NCBI GenBank assembly: GCA_959018155.1
Contig: CAUEKH010000203.1
Location: 1 to 5,406 of the forward strand
Direction: 5' to 3'
Length of the DNA stretch: 5,406 nt
Source: an uncultured Hungatella sp.
Lineage (GTDB): Bacteria; Bacillota; Clostridia; Lachnospirales; Lachnospiraceae
A model generated the notes under the pieces. It searched no databases. It was not told where the DNA came from and saw only the letters and a list, made by a program, of their open reading frames with translations. The position numbers and the translations under genes were made by a program. Positions 1 through 4,169 of this stretch are shown piece by piece; positions within the stretch are counted from its first letter, which is position 1, and each line of letters starts with the position of its first letter.

Positions 1-987
1 AGCAGCAAGTACATCAACGACTTGAAGGATGTGCTGGAAGGAAAAGATTTCTCCGTTAATATCATATCCAAGTCCGGAACCACGACGGAGCCGGCGATTG
101 CATTCCGTGTATTTAAGGAGATGCTGATTGAAAAGTATGGCCGTGAGGAAGCCAACAAGAGAATCTATGCCACAACCGATAAAGCAAGGGGAGCACTGAA
201 GAACCTGGCGACAGAAGAAGGATATGAGACCTTCGTCGTACCGGATGACGTTGGAGGACGTTTCTCAGTCCTGACAGCGGTCGGCCTTCTTCCGATTGCG
301 GTTTCAGGAGCTGATATTGATAAATTAATGGAAGGTGCTGCGGCAGGAAGAAAGGCGGCTTTAGAGACTCCGTATGAGTCCAACTCCGCATTACAGTATG
401 CTGCTGTTCGCAATATCTTACATAGAAAAGGCAAGGCAGTGGAGATCGTAGCCAACTATGAGCCAAGTCTTCACTACGTTTCCGAGTGGTGGAAGCAGCT
501 CTTCGGCGAGAGCGAGGGCAAGGACCACAGAGGTATCTTACCGGCAGCCGTTGATTTAACGACCGACTTACATTCCATGGGCCAGTTCATTCAGGACGGT
601 TCCCGTGTGATGTTTGAGACAGTATTGAATGTAGAGGATTCACCGGCAGAGATCCTGCTTCAGAAGGAAGAGGTGGATACAGATGGTATGAACTATCTGG
701 CAGGTAAGAGTGTAGATTTCGTCAACAAGAGCGCCATGAACGGCACAATCTTAGCACACACGGACGGCGACGTGCCGAACCTGATGGTTAAGATACCAGA
801 ACAGGACGAGTACTGCTTAGGCCAGTTATTCTACTTCTTTGAATATGCCTGCGGAATCAGCGGCTATATTCTCGGTGTCAATCCGTTCAATCAGCCAGGT
901 GTGGAGAGTTATAAGAGAAATATGTTCGCTCTTCTTGGAAAACCTGGATATGAGAAGGAAAGAGAAGAGTTATTAAAGAGACTGTAA
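1..987 (+). CDS. pgi: Glucose-6-phosphate isomerase, 5'-truncated by window edge
   Basis: Cytoplasmic enzyme interconverting glucose 6-phosphate and fructose 6-phosphate in glycolysis and gluconeogenesis. The frame is open from the first base, so the start lies upstream; 328 residues are visible and roughly 120 of the usual ~450 of the short bacterial form are missing. Counting codons from base 1, the sugar-phosphate-binding SKSGTTTEP is at 23-31, family signature 1 ([13 protein letters not shown]) at about 83-95, a [12 protein letters not shown] segment in the middle, and signature 2 ([10 protein letters not shown], with the conserved Lys) at 296-305. It ends with TAA, and a strong hairpin follows 53 bp later. 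A TTG at codon 8 could be mistaken for a start, but homology clearly continues 5' of it. No frameshift or missing motif is seen. Identification rests on the two family signatures and is firm. Confidence 0.97.
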
Positions 988-1190: not shown

Positions 1191-1308
1191 GGGCAGGTGG
1201 AGGAACTGGAAGACTCGGAGTAAAAATGTGTCTGGCTGCAGACACTGACAGCAAATATTCCTTGGGGGACTCTGCGTAAGCGTGCCGGTTCAAATCCGGC
1301 CCTGCCCA
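1191..1308 (+). ncRNA. tRNA-Leu-like Y-type ncRNA (tRNA mimic 1)
   Basis: A complete class II tRNA frame without a usable anticodon. Acceptor GGGCAGG (1191-1197) pairs perfectly with CCTGCCC (1301-1307), and the discriminator is A (1308). The D arm is GAG/CTC (1200-1202, 1214-1216) around a GG-containing loop like that of tRNA-Leu. The T arm is GCCGG-TTCAAAT-CCGGC (1284-1300). A short long-type variable arm, TGC-GTAA-GCG, lies at 1273-1282. GAGT (1218-1221) and ACTC (1269-1272) sit where the anticodon stem should be, but they enclose about 47 bases instead of 7. This insert holds a 6-bp hairpin (1228-1233 with 1240-1245) followed by TGACAGCAA. No CCA is encoded. It is inferred to be a bacterial Y-like RNA partner of the Ro60-like protein downstream. 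A decayed tRNA-Leu is the alternative, but perfect arms and the shared insert motif argue against decay. Confidence 0.8.
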
Positions 1309-1329
1309 TTTTAAGTTGAGAATCTATAA

Positions 1330-1380
1330 GAACCTGCGGCGATGGTGTGAAGTCATCATTGACAGCGATTCCTGCGGTTC
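1330..1380 (+). ncRNA. Short Y-like stem-loop RNA without tRNA frame
   Basis: The ends pair as GAACC/GGTTC (1330-1334 with 1376-1380) and continue, past a bulged T on each strand, as GCGG/CC-GC (1336-1339 with 1371-1372 and 1374-1375), giving about 9 bp with two single-base bulges. Inside, GATGGTG (1341-1347) pairs with CATCATT (1354-1360, two G-U pairs) around a 6-base loop. GACAGCGATT follows unpaired on the 3' side. TGACAGC(A/G)A followed by ATTCCT is shared with the insert of tRNA mimic 1. The bulged terminal helix resembles the general plan of Ro-binding Y RNA stems, but the vertebrate GGUCCGA 5' strand is not present. RNA ends are approximate. It may be an independent RNA or a spacer domain of the same precursor. 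Confidence 0.55.
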
Positions 1381-1393
1381 AGACAAAATATCA

Positions 1394-1504
1394 GGGGACA
1401 TAGCTCAGCTGGCAGAGCAGATATGGAGGTTTGACAAAATCTCCAACAGCAACATAACGGCCTCGTTAAGCCCTATGTCGCCGGTTCGACTCCGGCTGTC
1501 CCCG
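1394..1504 (+). ncRNA. tRNA-Ala-like Y-type ncRNA (tRNA mimic 2)
   Basis: Acceptor GGGGACA (1394-1400) pairs perfectly with TGTCCCC (1497-1503). The D arm is GCTC-AGCTGGCA-GAGC (1403-1418) and the T arm GCCGG-TTCGACT-CCGGC (1480-1496), both canonical. The 61 bases between them cannot form a normal anticodon arm. A 5-bp helix GATAT/ATGTC (1420-1424 with 1475-1479) takes the anticodon-stem place, leaving no variable loop. Above it lies an 8-9 bp hairpin (from 1424/1425 to 1444/1445) with a GACA tetraloop, then AACAGCAAC, then a second small hairpin (GGC 1459-1461 with GCC 1470-1472). The 5' half closely matches bacterial tRNA-Ala, but position 3:70 is G-C and the discriminator is G, so alanine identity looks lost. 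No CCA is encoded. The preceding AATATCA is repeated before mimic 3. Confidence 0.85.
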
Positions 1505-1530
1505 TTTGCTTTGCTGAAAATATAATATCA

Positions 1531-1643
1531 GGGGACATAGCTCAGTTGGTAGAGCAGATAAAATGGAGGTTTGACAAAATCTCTAACAGCAACTTATTGG
1601 CCTTTTAAGCCTCTTGTCGCCGGTTCGACTCCGGCTGTCTCCA
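1531..1643 (+). ncRNA. tRNA-Ala-like Y-type ncRNA with G3:U70 (tRNA mimic 3)
   Basis: A diverged duplicate of mimic 2. Acceptor GGGGACA (1531-1537) pairs with TGTCTCC (1636-1642), giving a G-U pair at position 3:70, and the discriminator is A (1643); both are the classic alanine identity elements. The D arm is GCTC-AGTTGGTA-GAGC (1540-1555) and the T arm GCCGG-TTCGACT-CCGGC (1619-1635). The anticodon-stem equivalent is GATAA/TTGTC (1557-1561 with 1614-1618), whose last pair is A-U where mimic 2 has U-A. The insert has the TGGAGGTTT hairpin with GACA tetraloop (1564-1585), ACAGCAAC, then GGC/GCC (1599-1601 with 1609-1611). There is no anticodon and no encoded CCA. It ends 85 bases before the Ro60-like start codon with no terminator between, so 3' processing here would free that mRNA. 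Confidence 0.85.
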
Positions 1644-1728
1644 CTCGATTTACCAGGCAGGCGGCGATTTACGCCTCCGAAGAGCGATAAAGCATCCGGA
1701 CACAGCCCGGAAGGAAAGGGGGACCACC
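1644..1728 (+). promoter_or_regulatory. Structured 5' leader of the Ro60-like gene
   Basis: Two small hairpins lie between the last tRNA mimic and the start codon: AGGCG/CGCCT (1659-1663 with 1672-1676) and TCCGG/CCGGA (1695-1699 with 1707-1711). The second abuts the purine-rich ribosome binding site (1711-1722, six bases before ATG) and displays ACAGC, the motif common to the neighbouring RNAs, in its 7-base loop. No T-run follows either hairpin, so neither is a convincing terminator, and no clear promoter is seen. Control of translation by the encoded RNA-binding protein is possible but unproven. Confidence 0.4.
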
Positions 1729-3315
1729 ATGGACTTCATAGATAAATTAAAGGAAACTCTCGATTCGACATTTAATACTTCCATTACGGAAAATGGTGCG
1801 GCAGGGTATCGCACGACGGGAAAAGAGCTTCTCGATTTGAATTTTTCTGTCACATCATTGAGAAATGAATCTCCGGAAGAGATTGTAAACCGGTTTGCCC
1901 GCGCGTTCTATGAGGACCGCAGGCTGGCTGTTAAGTGGCTCTTTTTTGCTTCTGATGTGCGGGGCGGTCTGGGAGAGAGAAGACTGTTTCAGATCTGTTA
2001 CCGCTATCTGGCGGAGAACCATCCGGAGATTGTGAAGAAGGTCCTCGATTTAGTACCGGAATACAGCAGATGGGATAATCTGCTGGTCCTTCTCGATACC
2101 GATCTGGCTTCCGATGCCGCAGCGCTCATTGAAAAGCAGCTGAAAGAGGACACAGAGAATGCGCACAATGGTCTTTCCGTTTCCCTCTGCGCCAAATGGC
2201 TTCCTTCGGTAAATGCGTCGTCAGAGGAGACGAGGCGGAGAGCCCGCCTTCTGGCAAATATGCTTTCCATGACAGAGCGAGAGTACCGCAGGACCTTATC
2301 TGAGTTCAGGGCGTATTTAAAAGTCATTGAGACATTTATGAGCAGCCACAAATGGGAGGAAATTGCCTACAAAGAAGTCCCTGCCAGGGCGAATCTCATT
2401 TATAATAAGGCATTTTTAAGACATGATGAAGCCCGCAGGCTGGCATACCTGGAGAGCCTGAAAAAGGGCGAGACGACAATCCATGCCGGGGTACTCTATC
2501 CCCACGACATCGTCCATCGCTATACTGAGAACAGCGGCCGCCAGGACTGGAGGCTGATGCCGCAGGATGATACGCTGGAGGAACTGTGGAAAGCCCTTCC
2601 CGATTATGTACAGGGGGGAGGAAACACGATCTGTGTATCGGACGGTTCCGGAAGTATGATGTCCCGGATAGGCAATACGGAGGTGACGTGCCTCGATGTG
2701 GCGAACAGTCTGTCTATCTATTTTGCGGAGCGGTGCAGCGGGCCTTTCCACAATACGTTTATCACCTTCAGTGAGCGCCCCAGACTGGTGAAGTTGTCCG
2801 GAGGAAAGAATCTGAAGGAAAAAATAGAGATTGCCAGACGGTATAATGAGGTGGCCAATACCAACATCGAAGCAGTTTTTGATCTGATTCTGGAGACGGC
2901 CATACGGAACCGTATGGATCAGGAAGATATGCCCGCCTCTGTTCTGATTCTGTCCGATATGGAATTTGATACGGCGACAGGATACGGCCAGACGAGATAT
3001 GTGAATGGCCGGTTCGTACAGGAGAAAGGCTCGGACAGACGTTTGTTTGCGGTGCTGTCTAAGCGGTATGAGGCCGCCGGTTATCACCTTCCAAGGCTGG
3101 TATTCTGGAATATCTGCAGCCGGACCGGTACGATTCCGGTCAGAGAGAACAAGATGGGGGTTGCGCTGGTAAGCGGGTTCTCCGTTACGATTATGAAAAT
3201 GGTGCTGAGCGGGGAGACGGATCCATTCCTCTGTCTGTTAGAGCAGCTCAATTCTCCCAGATACGATGCGGTAGAGGAAAGATGGAGAGAAGCGGTTGAG
3301 GAAGCAAAAGGGTAA
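1729..3315 (+). CDS. DUF2828-family Ro60-like protein (TROVE-like region plus vWA domain)
   Basis: A 528-residue soluble protein without signal peptide or membrane segment. The N-terminal two thirds are alpha-helical and carry the family patterns DVRGGLGERRLFQ (76-88), VPEYSRWDNLL (109-119) and KAFLRHDEARRLAYL followed by GVLYPHDIV (227-262), typical of DUF2828, which I regard as related to the TROVE RNA-binding module of Ro60. The C-terminal third is a von Willebrand A domain with a complete-looking metal site: D305-x-S307-x-S309, T378 in NTNIEAVF, and D410 in LSDMEFD, then the family block LVFWNICSR and VALVSGFS. Length is close to animal Ro60. Known bacterial Ro60 proteins form RNA-binding rings, bind Y RNAs and help nucleases in RNA turnover under stress; this role here is inferred. 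The ATG is set by a strong AGGAAAGGGGG ribosome binding site 6 bases upstream. The upstream tRNA-like RNAs are the probable partners. No RtcB ligase or nuclease lies beside it in this window. Family assignment is strong, function moderate. Confidence 0.88.
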   Translation: MDFIDKLKETLDSTFNTSITENGAAGYRTTGKELLDLNFSVTSLRNESPEEIVNRFARAFYEDRRLAVKWLFFASDVRGGLGERRLFQICYRYLAENHPEIVKKVLDLVPEYSRWDNLLVLLDTDLASDAAALIEKQLKEDTENAHNGLSVSLCAKWLPSVNASSEETRRRARLLANMLSMTEREYRRTLSEFRAYLKVIETFMSSHKWEEIAYKEVPARANLIYNKAFLRHDEARRLAYLESLKKGETTIHAGVLYPHDIVHRYTENSGRQDWRLMPQDDTLEELWKALPDYVQGGGNTICVSDGSGSMMSRIGNTEVTCLDVANSLSIYFAERCSGPFHNTFITFSERPRLVKLSGGKNLKEKIEIARRYNEVANTNIEAVFDLILETAIRNRMDQEDMPASVLILSDMEFDTATGYGQTRYVNGRFVQEKGSDRRLFAVLSKRYEAAGYHLPRLVFWNICSRTGTIPVRENKMGVALVSGFSVTIMKMVLSGETDPFLCLLEQLNSPRYDAVEERWREAVEEAKG

Positions 3316-3320
3316 GATTC

Positions 3321-4169
3321 CTATTCTTTCTCTTCCGCATTCTGCTTTCTGTACTGATTCGGACTCATCCCCATGAATTTCCTGAATATCTGCGAGAAAT
3401 ACGACTGGGAGGCGAATCCGGTGCTGGAAGCGATCTCCGCGATGGAGTGGTTGGTCTGGGTCAGCATATCTTTGCTGACCTCCAGCCTTCTGTGGATTAA
3501 ATAAGTGATCGGTGACATTCCCAGATATTTCGTAAAGGCATGGGATAAGTAAAATTTATTGATATGGGTCGATTCGGCTAAGGAATCCAGGGTAATGGGC
3601 TGCGCGTAGTTCGAGTCGAGATACCGCTTAACCAGAGCGCATTCCTTGGGGATTCGGGCTGATTCCAGGGAGAGAAGCCCCATCTGTTCATTTCTGGTGA
3701 TGTAGATAATTAAAACCTCCAGGATAGCGTGGCATACCCGCTCATATCCGCTCCTTTTTTCTGTGATTTCCCGTATCATCAGCTGGGAGAAGTTGAGCAG
3801 ATGCTTCTTGTCCGACGAATAATTATAGTGGCCGTAGCTGGCCGGGGCCGCCTTTGATCCGAACTGGAAGGTCAGCCCTTCCACACCGAAAACAATATAC
3901 TCTAAAGGGCTGGAGTCGAGAGATTTTTCCGTGTGTTCCACATTGGGATTGATGATGACCAGGTCATTTTCACGAACGGTGATCAGCTGATCCTCAATCA
4001 GAAAATTCCCCTGGCCGCTGATGACGTAAAAGAGTTCTGTAAAATGGTGAGTATGGGGCAGACTCTGCCAGTCCCCCTCGTATTTGGACGTAGAGGCATA
4101 CAGAAGCTTAAAATTAAGCTTGTCCAGCATTTCTATATTCTTATCAAAATTAAATCGTTCGTTTCCCAT
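3321..4169 (-). CDS. AraC/XylS-family transcriptional regulator with N-terminal cupin sensor
   Basis: A 282-residue cytoplasmic DNA-binding regulator. Residues about 35-95 form a cupin-type effector domain (PHTHHFTELFYVISGQG, then ENDLVIINPNVEHT). Residues about 178-276 hold two helix-turn-helix motifs: LDSLAESTHINKFYLSHAF (194-212) and SIAEIASSTGFASQSYFSQIF (from 242), the latter followed by the conserved RKFMGMSPNQYR end. Such regulators usually bind a sugar or related ligand through the cupin and activate a neighbouring transport operon. It is divergent from the solute-binding protein gene, its likely target, and convergent with the Ro60-like gene with 5 bp between stop codons and no obvious terminator. 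A ribosome site AGAAAGGAA lies 12 bases before the ATG, somewhat far. No good promoter was found for it. The ligand is unknown. Confidence 0.93.
   Translation of the reverse strand: MGNERFNFDKNIEMLDKLNFKLLYASTSKYEGDWQSLPHTHHFTELFYVISGQGNFLIEDQLITVRENDLVIINPNVEHTEKSLDSSPLEYIVFGVEGLTFQFGSKAAPASYGHYNYSSDKKHLLNFSQLMIREITEKRSGYERVCHAILEVLIIYITRNEQMGLLSLESARIPKECALVKRYLDSNYAQPITLDSLAESTHINKFYLSHAFTKYLGMSPITYLIHRRLEVSKDMLTQTNHSIAEIASSTGFASQSYFSQIFRKFMGMSPNQYRKQNAEEKE

What the first reader, a model, noticed from the sequence alone, without database searches (positions are those of the whole stretch)
1191..3315. Cluster of four structured RNAs upstream of a Ro60-like DUF2828 protein
Three anticodon-less tRNA-like RNAs and one bulged stem-loop RNA lie head to tail, ending 85 bases before a TROVE-like/vWA gene. 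Established knowledge: bacterial Ro60 proteins are often encoded beside Y RNAs, and the YrlA class of Y RNA mimics tRNA. What is unusual is four RNAs in one locus, a DUF2828-type partner rather than a classical TROVE protein, and near-complete tRNA frames. Partnership is inferred from adjacency and the shared motif.
Basis: partly seen in the sequence, partly recalled or inferred. Interest (0 to 1): 0.93.

Follow-up and report, generated by a model that had tools for sequence, protein, structure and literature searches.

The report
Split-anticodon tRNA mimics for Ro-like protein
Just upstream of a gene whose protein is predicted to fold like the RNA-holding protein Ro60 lie three tRNA-like sequences that carry a hairpin followed by ACAGCAA in the anticodon arm; the same kind of element recurs beside relatives of this gene in other bacteria and in phages, so these RNAs are likely the protein's dedicated partners.

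Summary
The cluster is real. Three tRNA-like sequences (1191-1308, 1394-1504, 1531-1643) and a weaker stem-loop (1330-1380) precede a DUF2828/vWA gene (1729-3315) whose predicted structure matches Ro60 over most of its length. Across 25 aligned RNAs the split stem shows compensatory changes. A covariance model finds such RNAs in 11 of 397 genomes of one bacterial family; 10 of the 11 hold DUF2828 (38 of 397 do), with the RNA beside it. Other DUF2828 loci carry a like core on other scaffolds: a bare hairpin, a tRNA joined at its acceptor end, a permuted YrlA-like module. ACAGCAA is biased to the gene's sense strand (125 against 5 copies in 89 regions). Arrays are therefore common. Best reading: a Ro60-type RNP whose Y-like RNAs graft one predicted protein-binding core onto tRNA bodies. 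Binding, expression and function are inferred. New variant of a known kind.

The parts
1..987 (+). 3' part of a phosphoglucose isomerase gene (neighbour, not part of the system)
   Evidence: ORF open at the window edge; PF00342, 64 bits
1041..1080 (+). terminator-like hairpin (17 pairs) between that gene and the RNA cluster
   Evidence: a consensus match only
1191..1308 (+). tRNA-like RNA 1, with a tRNA-Leu-like D region and long variable arm (type recalled, no call); carries hairpin plus ACAGCAA
   Evidence: R1 match 49.1 bits, E 1.1e-10; fold z -2.44
1228..1245 (+). core hairpin of RNA 1
   Evidence: sequence and fold
1248..1254 (+). ACAGCAA of RNA 1
   Evidence: sequence
1330..1380 (+). stem-loop RNA 2 with ACAGCGA (1362-1368) on a bulged outer stem; weakest member
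   Evidence: fold z -1.49; core hairpin not in the minimum-energy fold
1394..1504 (+). tRNA-like RNA 3; anticodon stem incomplete
   Evidence: RF00005 42.5 bits; R1 100.6 bits; fold z -4.34
1424..1445 (+). core hairpin of RNA 3 (9 pairs, loop of 4)
   Evidence: fold
1446..1452 (+). ACAGCAA of RNA 3
   Evidence: sequence
1531..1643 (+). tRNA-like RNA 4; complete split anticodon arm
   Evidence: RF00005 46.0 bits; R1 120.3 bits; fold z -2.58
1557..1558 (+). RNA 4, nucleotides 27-28: first part of the 5' anticodon-stem strand (GA)
1559..1598 (+). RNA 4, 40-nt insert between nucleotides 28 and 29
1564..1585 (+). core hairpin of RNA 4 (9 pairs, loop of 4)
   Evidence: fold
1586..1592 (+). ACAGCAA of RNA 4
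   Evidence: sequence
1599..1613 (+). RNA 4, rest of the anticodon arm: GGC, loop CTTTTAA, GCCTC
1729..3315 (+). DUF2828 + DUF7788 (vWA) protein, 528 aa, predicted Ro60-like fold

Best explanation
This is a Ro60-type ribonucleoprotein locus: a DUF2828/vWA protein predicted to fold like Ro60, preceded by three tRNA-like RNA sequences (and one weaker stem-loop) that each carry a hairpin-ACAGCAA core in the anticodon arm, which the protein likely binds. Shown: the anatomy; covariation of the split anticodon stem; the genomic coupling of these RNAs to DUF2828; a like core on differently built RNAs beside other DUF2828 genes. Inferred: the RNAs are transcribed and cut out as separate RNAs; the core docks on the protein's ring; the tRNA body stays outside. 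Because the core is attached at the anticodon stem in some RNAs, at the acceptor end in others and in a permuted YrlA-like module in at least one, the feature that all tRNA-bearing versions can keep is the D-loop/T-loop elbow. The most likely job of the body is therefore to act as a handle that an elbow-reading tRNA enzyme (a processing, decay or repair factor) grips, so that the Ro-like ring and that enzyme work on the same defective RNA. The anticodon loop keeps a U33...A37 frame but not its triplet, so it is likely a shape and not a decoder.
For: Covariation on 25 RNAs: 93.9% of 748 cells paired, 21 of 30 pairs with changes on both sides, score 0.571 against 0.200 shuffled; both pairs of 27-28/42-43 and all three of 29-31/39-41 change on both sides. 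In 18 DUF2828 genomes all 28 matches above 60 bits have the coordinates of the DUF2828 loci, in 14 of 18 genomes; ordinary-length matches there reach 59.7 bits (at most 150 candidates scored per genome). 397 genomes of one family: RNA in 11, of which 10 have DUF2828, against 28 of the other 386 (p 2e-10); in all 10 the RNA is upstream on the same strand (9 candidates scored per genome; the centre genome G016 had supplied a model sequence). Second order: the only two long matches in 396 genomes are beside DUF2828 (one, G008, had supplied a model sequence). ACAGCAA is in 22 of 28 upstream regions of DUF2828 genes without an R1 match (1.9 expected; reverse complement in 1). Core-at-ends pattern: 38 in 89 regions, 0.85 per shuffle, 1 antisense. 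Phage records: 24 sense copies outside the gene in 10 of 14, none antisense outside it; 3 of the 24 lie in annotated small ORFs. Fold. Anticodon loop: U33 in 34 of 37, A37 in 36 of 37, 14 triplets; 13 RNAs sharing one acceptor strand carry 7 triplets.
Confidence: 0.72

Rival explanations
1. Decoys. The tRNA bodies with an anticodon loop are bait for anticodon nucleases or other tRNA-attacking toxins, and the Ro-like protein stabilises or parks them; the changing triplets follow changing enemies.
For: The loop frame (U33, A37) is kept while the triplet changes among RNAs with the same acceptor strand. The protein is common in phages (672 records), and RNA ligases lie near DUF2828 in 2 of 14 phage records fetched, 3 of which are unannotated. 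PMC7790460 (passages read) raises competitive inhibition of an anticodon nuclease by YrlA as a possibility.
Against: Some RNAs have no anticodon arm left (89-90 nt forms in L016 and L033), and several copies of the core have loops of 25-45 nt, too short for a tRNA. Triplet change is also what loss of decoding would give.
Confidence: 0.2
2. Interrupted real tRNAs. The insert is an intron that is removed and the halves joined (for example by RtcB) to give working tRNAs.
For: The stem is complete if the two parts of its 5' strand are read together (25 of 66 RNAs with two nucleotides before the insert; 42 of 97 with all five pairs).
Against: The triplet varies within one acceptor group; an ordinary tRNA-Lys(UUU) gene exists in G001, whose RNA carries the same triplet; the core also occurs in RNAs too short for a tRNA; many copies lack a complete stem or loop; no ligase gene is seen in the window.
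Confidence: 0.05
3. Cis-acting leader. The array is the 5' untranslated region of the DUF2828 mRNA and controls it, for instance by binding its own protein.
For: The array is upstream on the same strand in all 10 co-occurring genomes, and the last RNA ends 85 bases before the start codon.
Against: In other DUF2828 loci the elements lie downstream: 43 sense against 4 antisense in the downstream flanks of 50 further viral loci, Cronobacter phage S13, L068 and L034. Seven-bp acceptor stems and a tRNA form suggest separate RNAs.
Confidence: 0.1
4. Debris. tRNA pseudogenes and repeats gathered at a tRNA hot spot, with no function.
For: The bodies resemble ordinary tRNAs.
Against: Compensatory changes in all six helices, strand bias and coupling to one protein family.
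Confidence: 0.03

Closest known systems
Ro60/Rsr with YrlA RNA (Rfam RF02553; PDB 6CU1)
   Same: Ro-fold protein beside small RNAs with a tRNA-like module; D and T arms kept; a further arm stands where the anticodon arm would be
   Different: YrlA is circularly permuted relative to tRNA (PMC11472068, passages read); here the tRNA order is kept, the anticodon stem is split and not replaced in the best copies, and the arm has ACAGCAA, absent from the YrlA consensus
Classical Y RNAs with Ro60 (vertebrates, Deinococcus)
   Same: Small stem-loop RNAs predicted to serve a Ro ring; the core-at-ends RNAs have the Y-like layout (recalled)
   Different: Core sequence, tRNA bodies and arrays of several RNAs
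tRNA (Rfam RF00005)
   Same: Acceptor, D and T arms; Rfam score above cut-off for RNAs 3 and 4
   Different: Interrupted anticodon stem; ARAGORN does not call them; free triplet
DUF2828 / PHROG 850 phage 'RNA-binding protein', 'Ro-like RNA binding protein'
   Same: Same protein family (450.8 bits; record names)
   Different: No RNA partner of DUF2828 appeared in the listings of the searches named
Intron-bearing or permuted tRNA genes (recalled)
   Same: Insert within a tRNA body
   Different: No sign of removal; the insert carries a core shared with non-tRNA RNAs

Membership tests
tRNA (RF00005) | Score above the Rfam gathering cut-off | tested here: met
   42.5 and 46.0 bits against 29 for RNAs 3 and 4; RNA 1 not listed
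tRNA (RF00005) | Uninterrupted anticodon arm that a tRNA finder accepts | tested here: not met
   ARAGORN: 0 genes; split stem in RNA 4, incomplete stem in RNA 3
YrlA (RF02553) | Score above the gathering cut-off | tested here: not met
   Best 32.3 bits against 69, spanning the end of RNA 3 and the start of RNA 4
YrlA (RF02553) | Permuted order, T arm before D arm | tested here: not met
   Window RNAs 3 and 4 run acceptor, D arm, insert, T arm
Y RNA (functional class) | Encoded beside a Ro-like protein gene | tested here: met
   85 bases upstream; Ro60-like predicted fold
Y RNA (functional class) | Bound by the Ro protein | not testable with these tools
   needs biochemistry
Ro60/TROVE protein (PF05731) | Match to the TROVE profile | tested here: not met
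   Only PF25043 and PF11443 listed at E <= 1
Ro60/TROVE protein (PF05731) | Helical-repeat ring plus vWA fold | tested here: met
DUF2828 (PF11443) + DUF7788 (PF25043) | Scores above curated cut-offs | tested here: met
   121 (cut-off 29) and 163.9 (27.1) bits

The most novel reading that the evidence does not exclude
DUF2828 Ro proteins across Clostridia and many phages are the partners of an undescribed RNA superfamily defined by one hairpin-ACAGCAA core, grafted onto tRNA bodies at three different places (inside the anticodon stem, at the acceptor end, and in a permuted YrlA-like frame) or onto bare hairpins. YrlA would then be one permutation of a general design: a Ro dock plus a tRNA elbow. 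The split-anticodon form is a tRNA with a protein dock built into its anticodon stem and a freely changing pseudo-anticodon.
Probability: 0.5. Interest if true: 0.92.

Novelty: new variant of a known kind. Interest (0 to 1): 0.85.

Why it matters
Ro60 and its Y RNAs are known from vertebrates and some bacteria, and why bacterial Y RNAs mimic tRNA is, to my knowledge, unsolved. If one core is placed on tRNA bodies in several topologies, then the tRNA elbow is what selection keeps, which makes the question testable with a defined set of natural variants. It also assigns a likely RNA partner to a protein family that is common in phages (672 records) and is mostly annotated there as 'RNA-binding', 'Ro-like' or 'hypothetical' in the records listed, and it gives a short signature (ACAGCAA or RYNGCAA after a hairpin, sense strand, beside DUF2828) by which such RNAs, two of them now annotated as odd tRNAs, can be found.

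Tried and rejected
YrlA membership: rejected; the match joins two neighbouring RNAs. Single-protein scans of the genome and viral collections found no confirmed relative; the alignment-based scans did. PDB sequence search: no match, so the fold was predicted. Encoded CCA: 91 of 102 long R1 matches lack it; the ordinary tRNA genes printed from G001 and G016 lack it too, while the two printed from G004 have it and the two RNAs of that genome (L008) do not, so the test is mostly uninformative. Promoter scan: none found, uninformative with a consensus scan. RNA 2 as a clean member: not supported. Intron reading: put low (see rivals). In 50 further viral loci the upstream motif is weak (12 sense, 5 antisense) and lies mainly downstream (43, 4), so an upstream-only test would have missed it. 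One search counted three RNA genomes; G621 is a 73-nt match of ordinary tRNA length at 64.4 bits and was set aside, so bit score alone does not separate the two kinds in every genome. An earlier count said 29 matches above 60 bits; the recount is 28 (entry 9).

Rows dropped: of L001-L068, 59 of 68 loci were used (nine left out by hand, mostly with little or no upstream sequence or a partial gene); of L069-L136, 50 of 68 were listed by hand. One search lists 72 matches in 37 of 60 sources; one overlapping duplicate was dropped (71), identical sequences then removed (66). In one search, 23 of 120 matches were dropped as shorter than 85 nt or identical. The 89 regions are 88 regions upstream of DUF2828 genes (59 loci, the window, 28 fetched) and the stretch around the RNA of L147. 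Several loci are near copies (such as L009/L047, L008/L057, L003/L017), so counts are not independent. Chance presence of ACAGCAA in a few kb is not rare, so the antisense counts are the control to look at.
Full report
What is in the window. The order is: the 3' part of a phosphoglucose isomerase gene (1-987), a terminator-like hairpin (1041-1080), the RNA cluster (1191-1643), an 85-base gap, a DUF2828/DUF7788 gene (1729-3315), an AraC-type regulator on the minus strand (3321-4169) and the start of a solute-binding protein gene. No whole genome is held for the window. Among the 120 best protein relatives listed, those that carry an organism name are Lachnospiraceae MAGs.

Are the RNAs real? 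Rfam scores 1394-1504 and 1531-1643 as tRNA above its cut-off, with a 55-base stretch not shown where the anticodon arm should be; ARAGORN finds nothing. Folding energies beat dinucleotide shuffles for RNAs 1, 3 and 4 (z -2.44, -4.34, -2.58) but not clearly for RNA 2 (-1.49).

Relatives. An alignment of 34 homologues recovered 56 genome loci and 80 of 284 viral loci. In 15 of the 56 genome loci scanned with Rfam, 26 of 27 matches are unusually long tRNA matches (89-119 nt) upstream of DUF2828, in 13 of the 15 loci; the other is an ordinary tRNA. A scripted search of 59 loci plus the window listed 72 matches (71 without one overlapping duplicate) with at least six of seven acceptor pairs in 37 of these 60 sources; 20 of the 37 have two or more, at most four.

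The split anticodon arm. In 25 of 66 distinct RNAs the best-scoring reading is a 5-bp anticodon stem whose 5' strand has two nucleotides before the insert and three after it, with a 5-nt variable region and a 7-nt loop; in others the split lies elsewhere, the stem is incomplete, or no arm is left. RNA 4 of the window is a full case: GA^GGC, CTTTTAA, GCCTC. On a 25-sequence alignment (A2) all six helices have pairs with changes on both sides: 93.9% of 748 cells paired, 21 of 30 pairs with such changes, covariation score 0.571 against 0.200 +- 0.014 shuffled and 0.08-0.17 when slid; both pairs of the outer and all three pairs of the inner part of the split stem change on both sides. These sequences are related, and the structure was written from one of them, so the slid control leans in its favour.

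Coupling to DUF2828. The model R1 in 18 DUF2828 genomes gives 28 matches above 60 bits, all at the coordinates of the DUF2828 loci, in 14 genomes; matches of ordinary tRNA length reach at most 59.7 bits there (at most 150 candidates scored per genome). The four genomes without such a match (G013, G015, G017, G018) carry more distant DUF2828 proteins (37-48% identical). In 397 genomes of one family at E <= 1e-12, with stricter filters and 9 candidates scored per genome, 11 have the RNA; 10 of these are among the 38 with DUF2828 over the cut-off, against 28 of 386 RNA-negative genomes (Fisher p 2e-10, without correction for kinship), and in all 10 the RNA lies upstream on the same contig and strand. 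The centre genome G016 had supplied a sequence of the model. The exception, G149, has an RNA with ACAGCAA but no DUF2828 or TROVE match. In a second order, 396 genomes gave two long matches, both beside DUF2828 (one in G008, a source of the model), and one 73-nt match; 11 of 396 have DUF2828 over the cut-off.

One core, several scaffolds. The upstream regions of the 28 DUF2828 genes without an R1 match were fetched. By z the top 7-mers there are TACAGCA and ACAGCAA; ACAGCAA is in 22 of 28 regions against 1.9 expected, its reverse complement in 1. In 59 genome and gut-type viral loci, tRNA words lead and ACAGCAA comes sixth (40 of 59 against 4.0); in 50 other viral loci the upstream region shows no such enrichment, but their downstream flanks hold 43 sense against 4 antisense copies. 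In the tRNA-like RNAs the motif itself varies: exact ACAGCAA in 46 of 97 long R1 matches and 13 of the 25 model RNAs, RYNGCAA in all 25. Many copies sit in a second layout: helix strand AAG..., then the motif, then a loop, then the complementary strand followed by G. This layout occurs 38 times in 89 regions, against 0.85 per shuffle (20 shuffles) and once on the antisense strand. It looks like the core of RNA 4 with its ends moved: there the helix is closed by its own loop and the tRNA is attached on the other side. The loop of the second layout can be short and plain (L008, L058, L061), can hold a tRNA joined at its acceptor end (L177, L175 and L165: Rfam tRNA 47.9, 43.1 and 45.3 bits, between the two core strands to within a base), or a permuted YrlA-like module (L155, RF02553, 45.7 bits over the full model though below its cut-off of 69, beginning ACGGCATATACAGCA). 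The permuted form rests on this one example. Of 14 phage records, 10 have 24 sense ACAGCAA copies outside the gene and none antisense outside it; 3 of the 24 lie in annotated small ORFs (L185 4788, L186 4847 and 4936), and 3 records are unannotated; the exceptions are L182, L188, L192 and L195. Cronobacter phage S13 has two R1 matches (72.2 and 61.5 bits) that its record calls tRNA-Ser (121 nt) and tRNA-OTHER (113 nt).

Pseudo-anticodons. Among 97 distinct R1 matches of at least 85 nt, 42 have all five split-stem pairs and 37 of these a 7-nt loop: U33 in 34, A37 in 36, but 14 different triplets. Thirteen RNAs with the same acceptor strand (AGGGCUA) carry seven triplets, with U33 and A37 in all 13; a fourteenth (L016) has a 5-nt loop. 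Genome G001, whose RNA carries a UUU loop, also has an ordinary tRNA-Lys(UUU) gene; for the other three genomes looked at, an ordinary gene with the same triplet was not among the 20 regions fetched, which were chosen by score and not by anticodon. The frame is kept and the reading is not, which argues for a shape and against decoding.

How it most likely works. The Ro-like ring likely holds each RNA by the hairpin-ACAGCAA core. Since the tRNA body is joined through its anticodon stem in one form, through its acceptor end in another and permuted in a third, only the elbow is common, so an elbow-binding tRNA enzyme is the likely partner of the body. This is inference. In Deinococcus the Y RNA tethers Rsr to PNPase (PMC7790460, passages, citing earlier work), which is the precedent for a handle. 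Decoys for anticodon nucleases remain the main rival.

What is known. YrlA is circularly permuted relative to tRNA (PMC11472068, passages). Jumbo-phage TROVE proteins have been set in the context of RNA repair (PMC7824862, passages), and a Ro60-related protein has been noted in a Vibrio jumbo phage (PMC7765460, passages). A full-text search for DUF2828 gave four papers, all on plants by title (search listing only). Nothing on DUF2828-linked RNAs or tRNAs with such an insert appeared in the listings, several of which show only the best 10-20 of many hits; the library holds only open-licence papers, and three main papers on bacterial Y RNAs are not in it, so this is no proof of absence.

Noticed in passing
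L190:4368-4610: Cronobacter phage S13 record annotates two RNAs matching R1 as tRNA-Ser (121 nt) and tRNA-OTHER (113 nt), downstream of its DUF2828 gene.
   Followed up: partly
L193:5412-5522: A 111-nt R1 match (57.1 bits) lies in the tRNA cluster downstream of DUF2828 in Klebsiella phage KP13-16; not annotated as a tRNA.
   Followed up: no
L184:5351-6443 and L192:932-2140: RNA ligases near DUF2828: an RtcB-like gene in Listeria phage LP-083-2 and an RNA ligase in Salmonella phage SE_PL, which hints at RNA repair.
   Followed up: no
L147:1501-1616: A lone R1-type RNA with AACAGCAAA in a genome without a DUF2828 or TROVE match, next to a nicotinamidase-like and a PRPP-synthetase-like ORF (names recalled from sequence, no family call).
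   Followed up: partly
L216, L217: One genome with DUF2828 (G002) also has a classical TROVE gene (588-aa open frame); its neighbourhood was not examined.
   Followed up: no
L155:1155-1250: A full-length but sub-threshold YrlA match whose 5' arm reads ACGGCATATACAGCA, so a YrlA-like RNA may carry the DUF2828-type core.
   Followed up: partly
L139, L141, L144, L145, L147: In some relatives the hairpin tip differs from CTTG...AAAG (for example CATGTTTGTG), a possible second version of the core hairpin.
   Followed up: no
L070-L136: Further viral DUF2828 loci have ACAGCAA mainly downstream of the gene; upstream the words TGGTGGT and GGTGGTA are enriched and unexplained.
   Followed up: no
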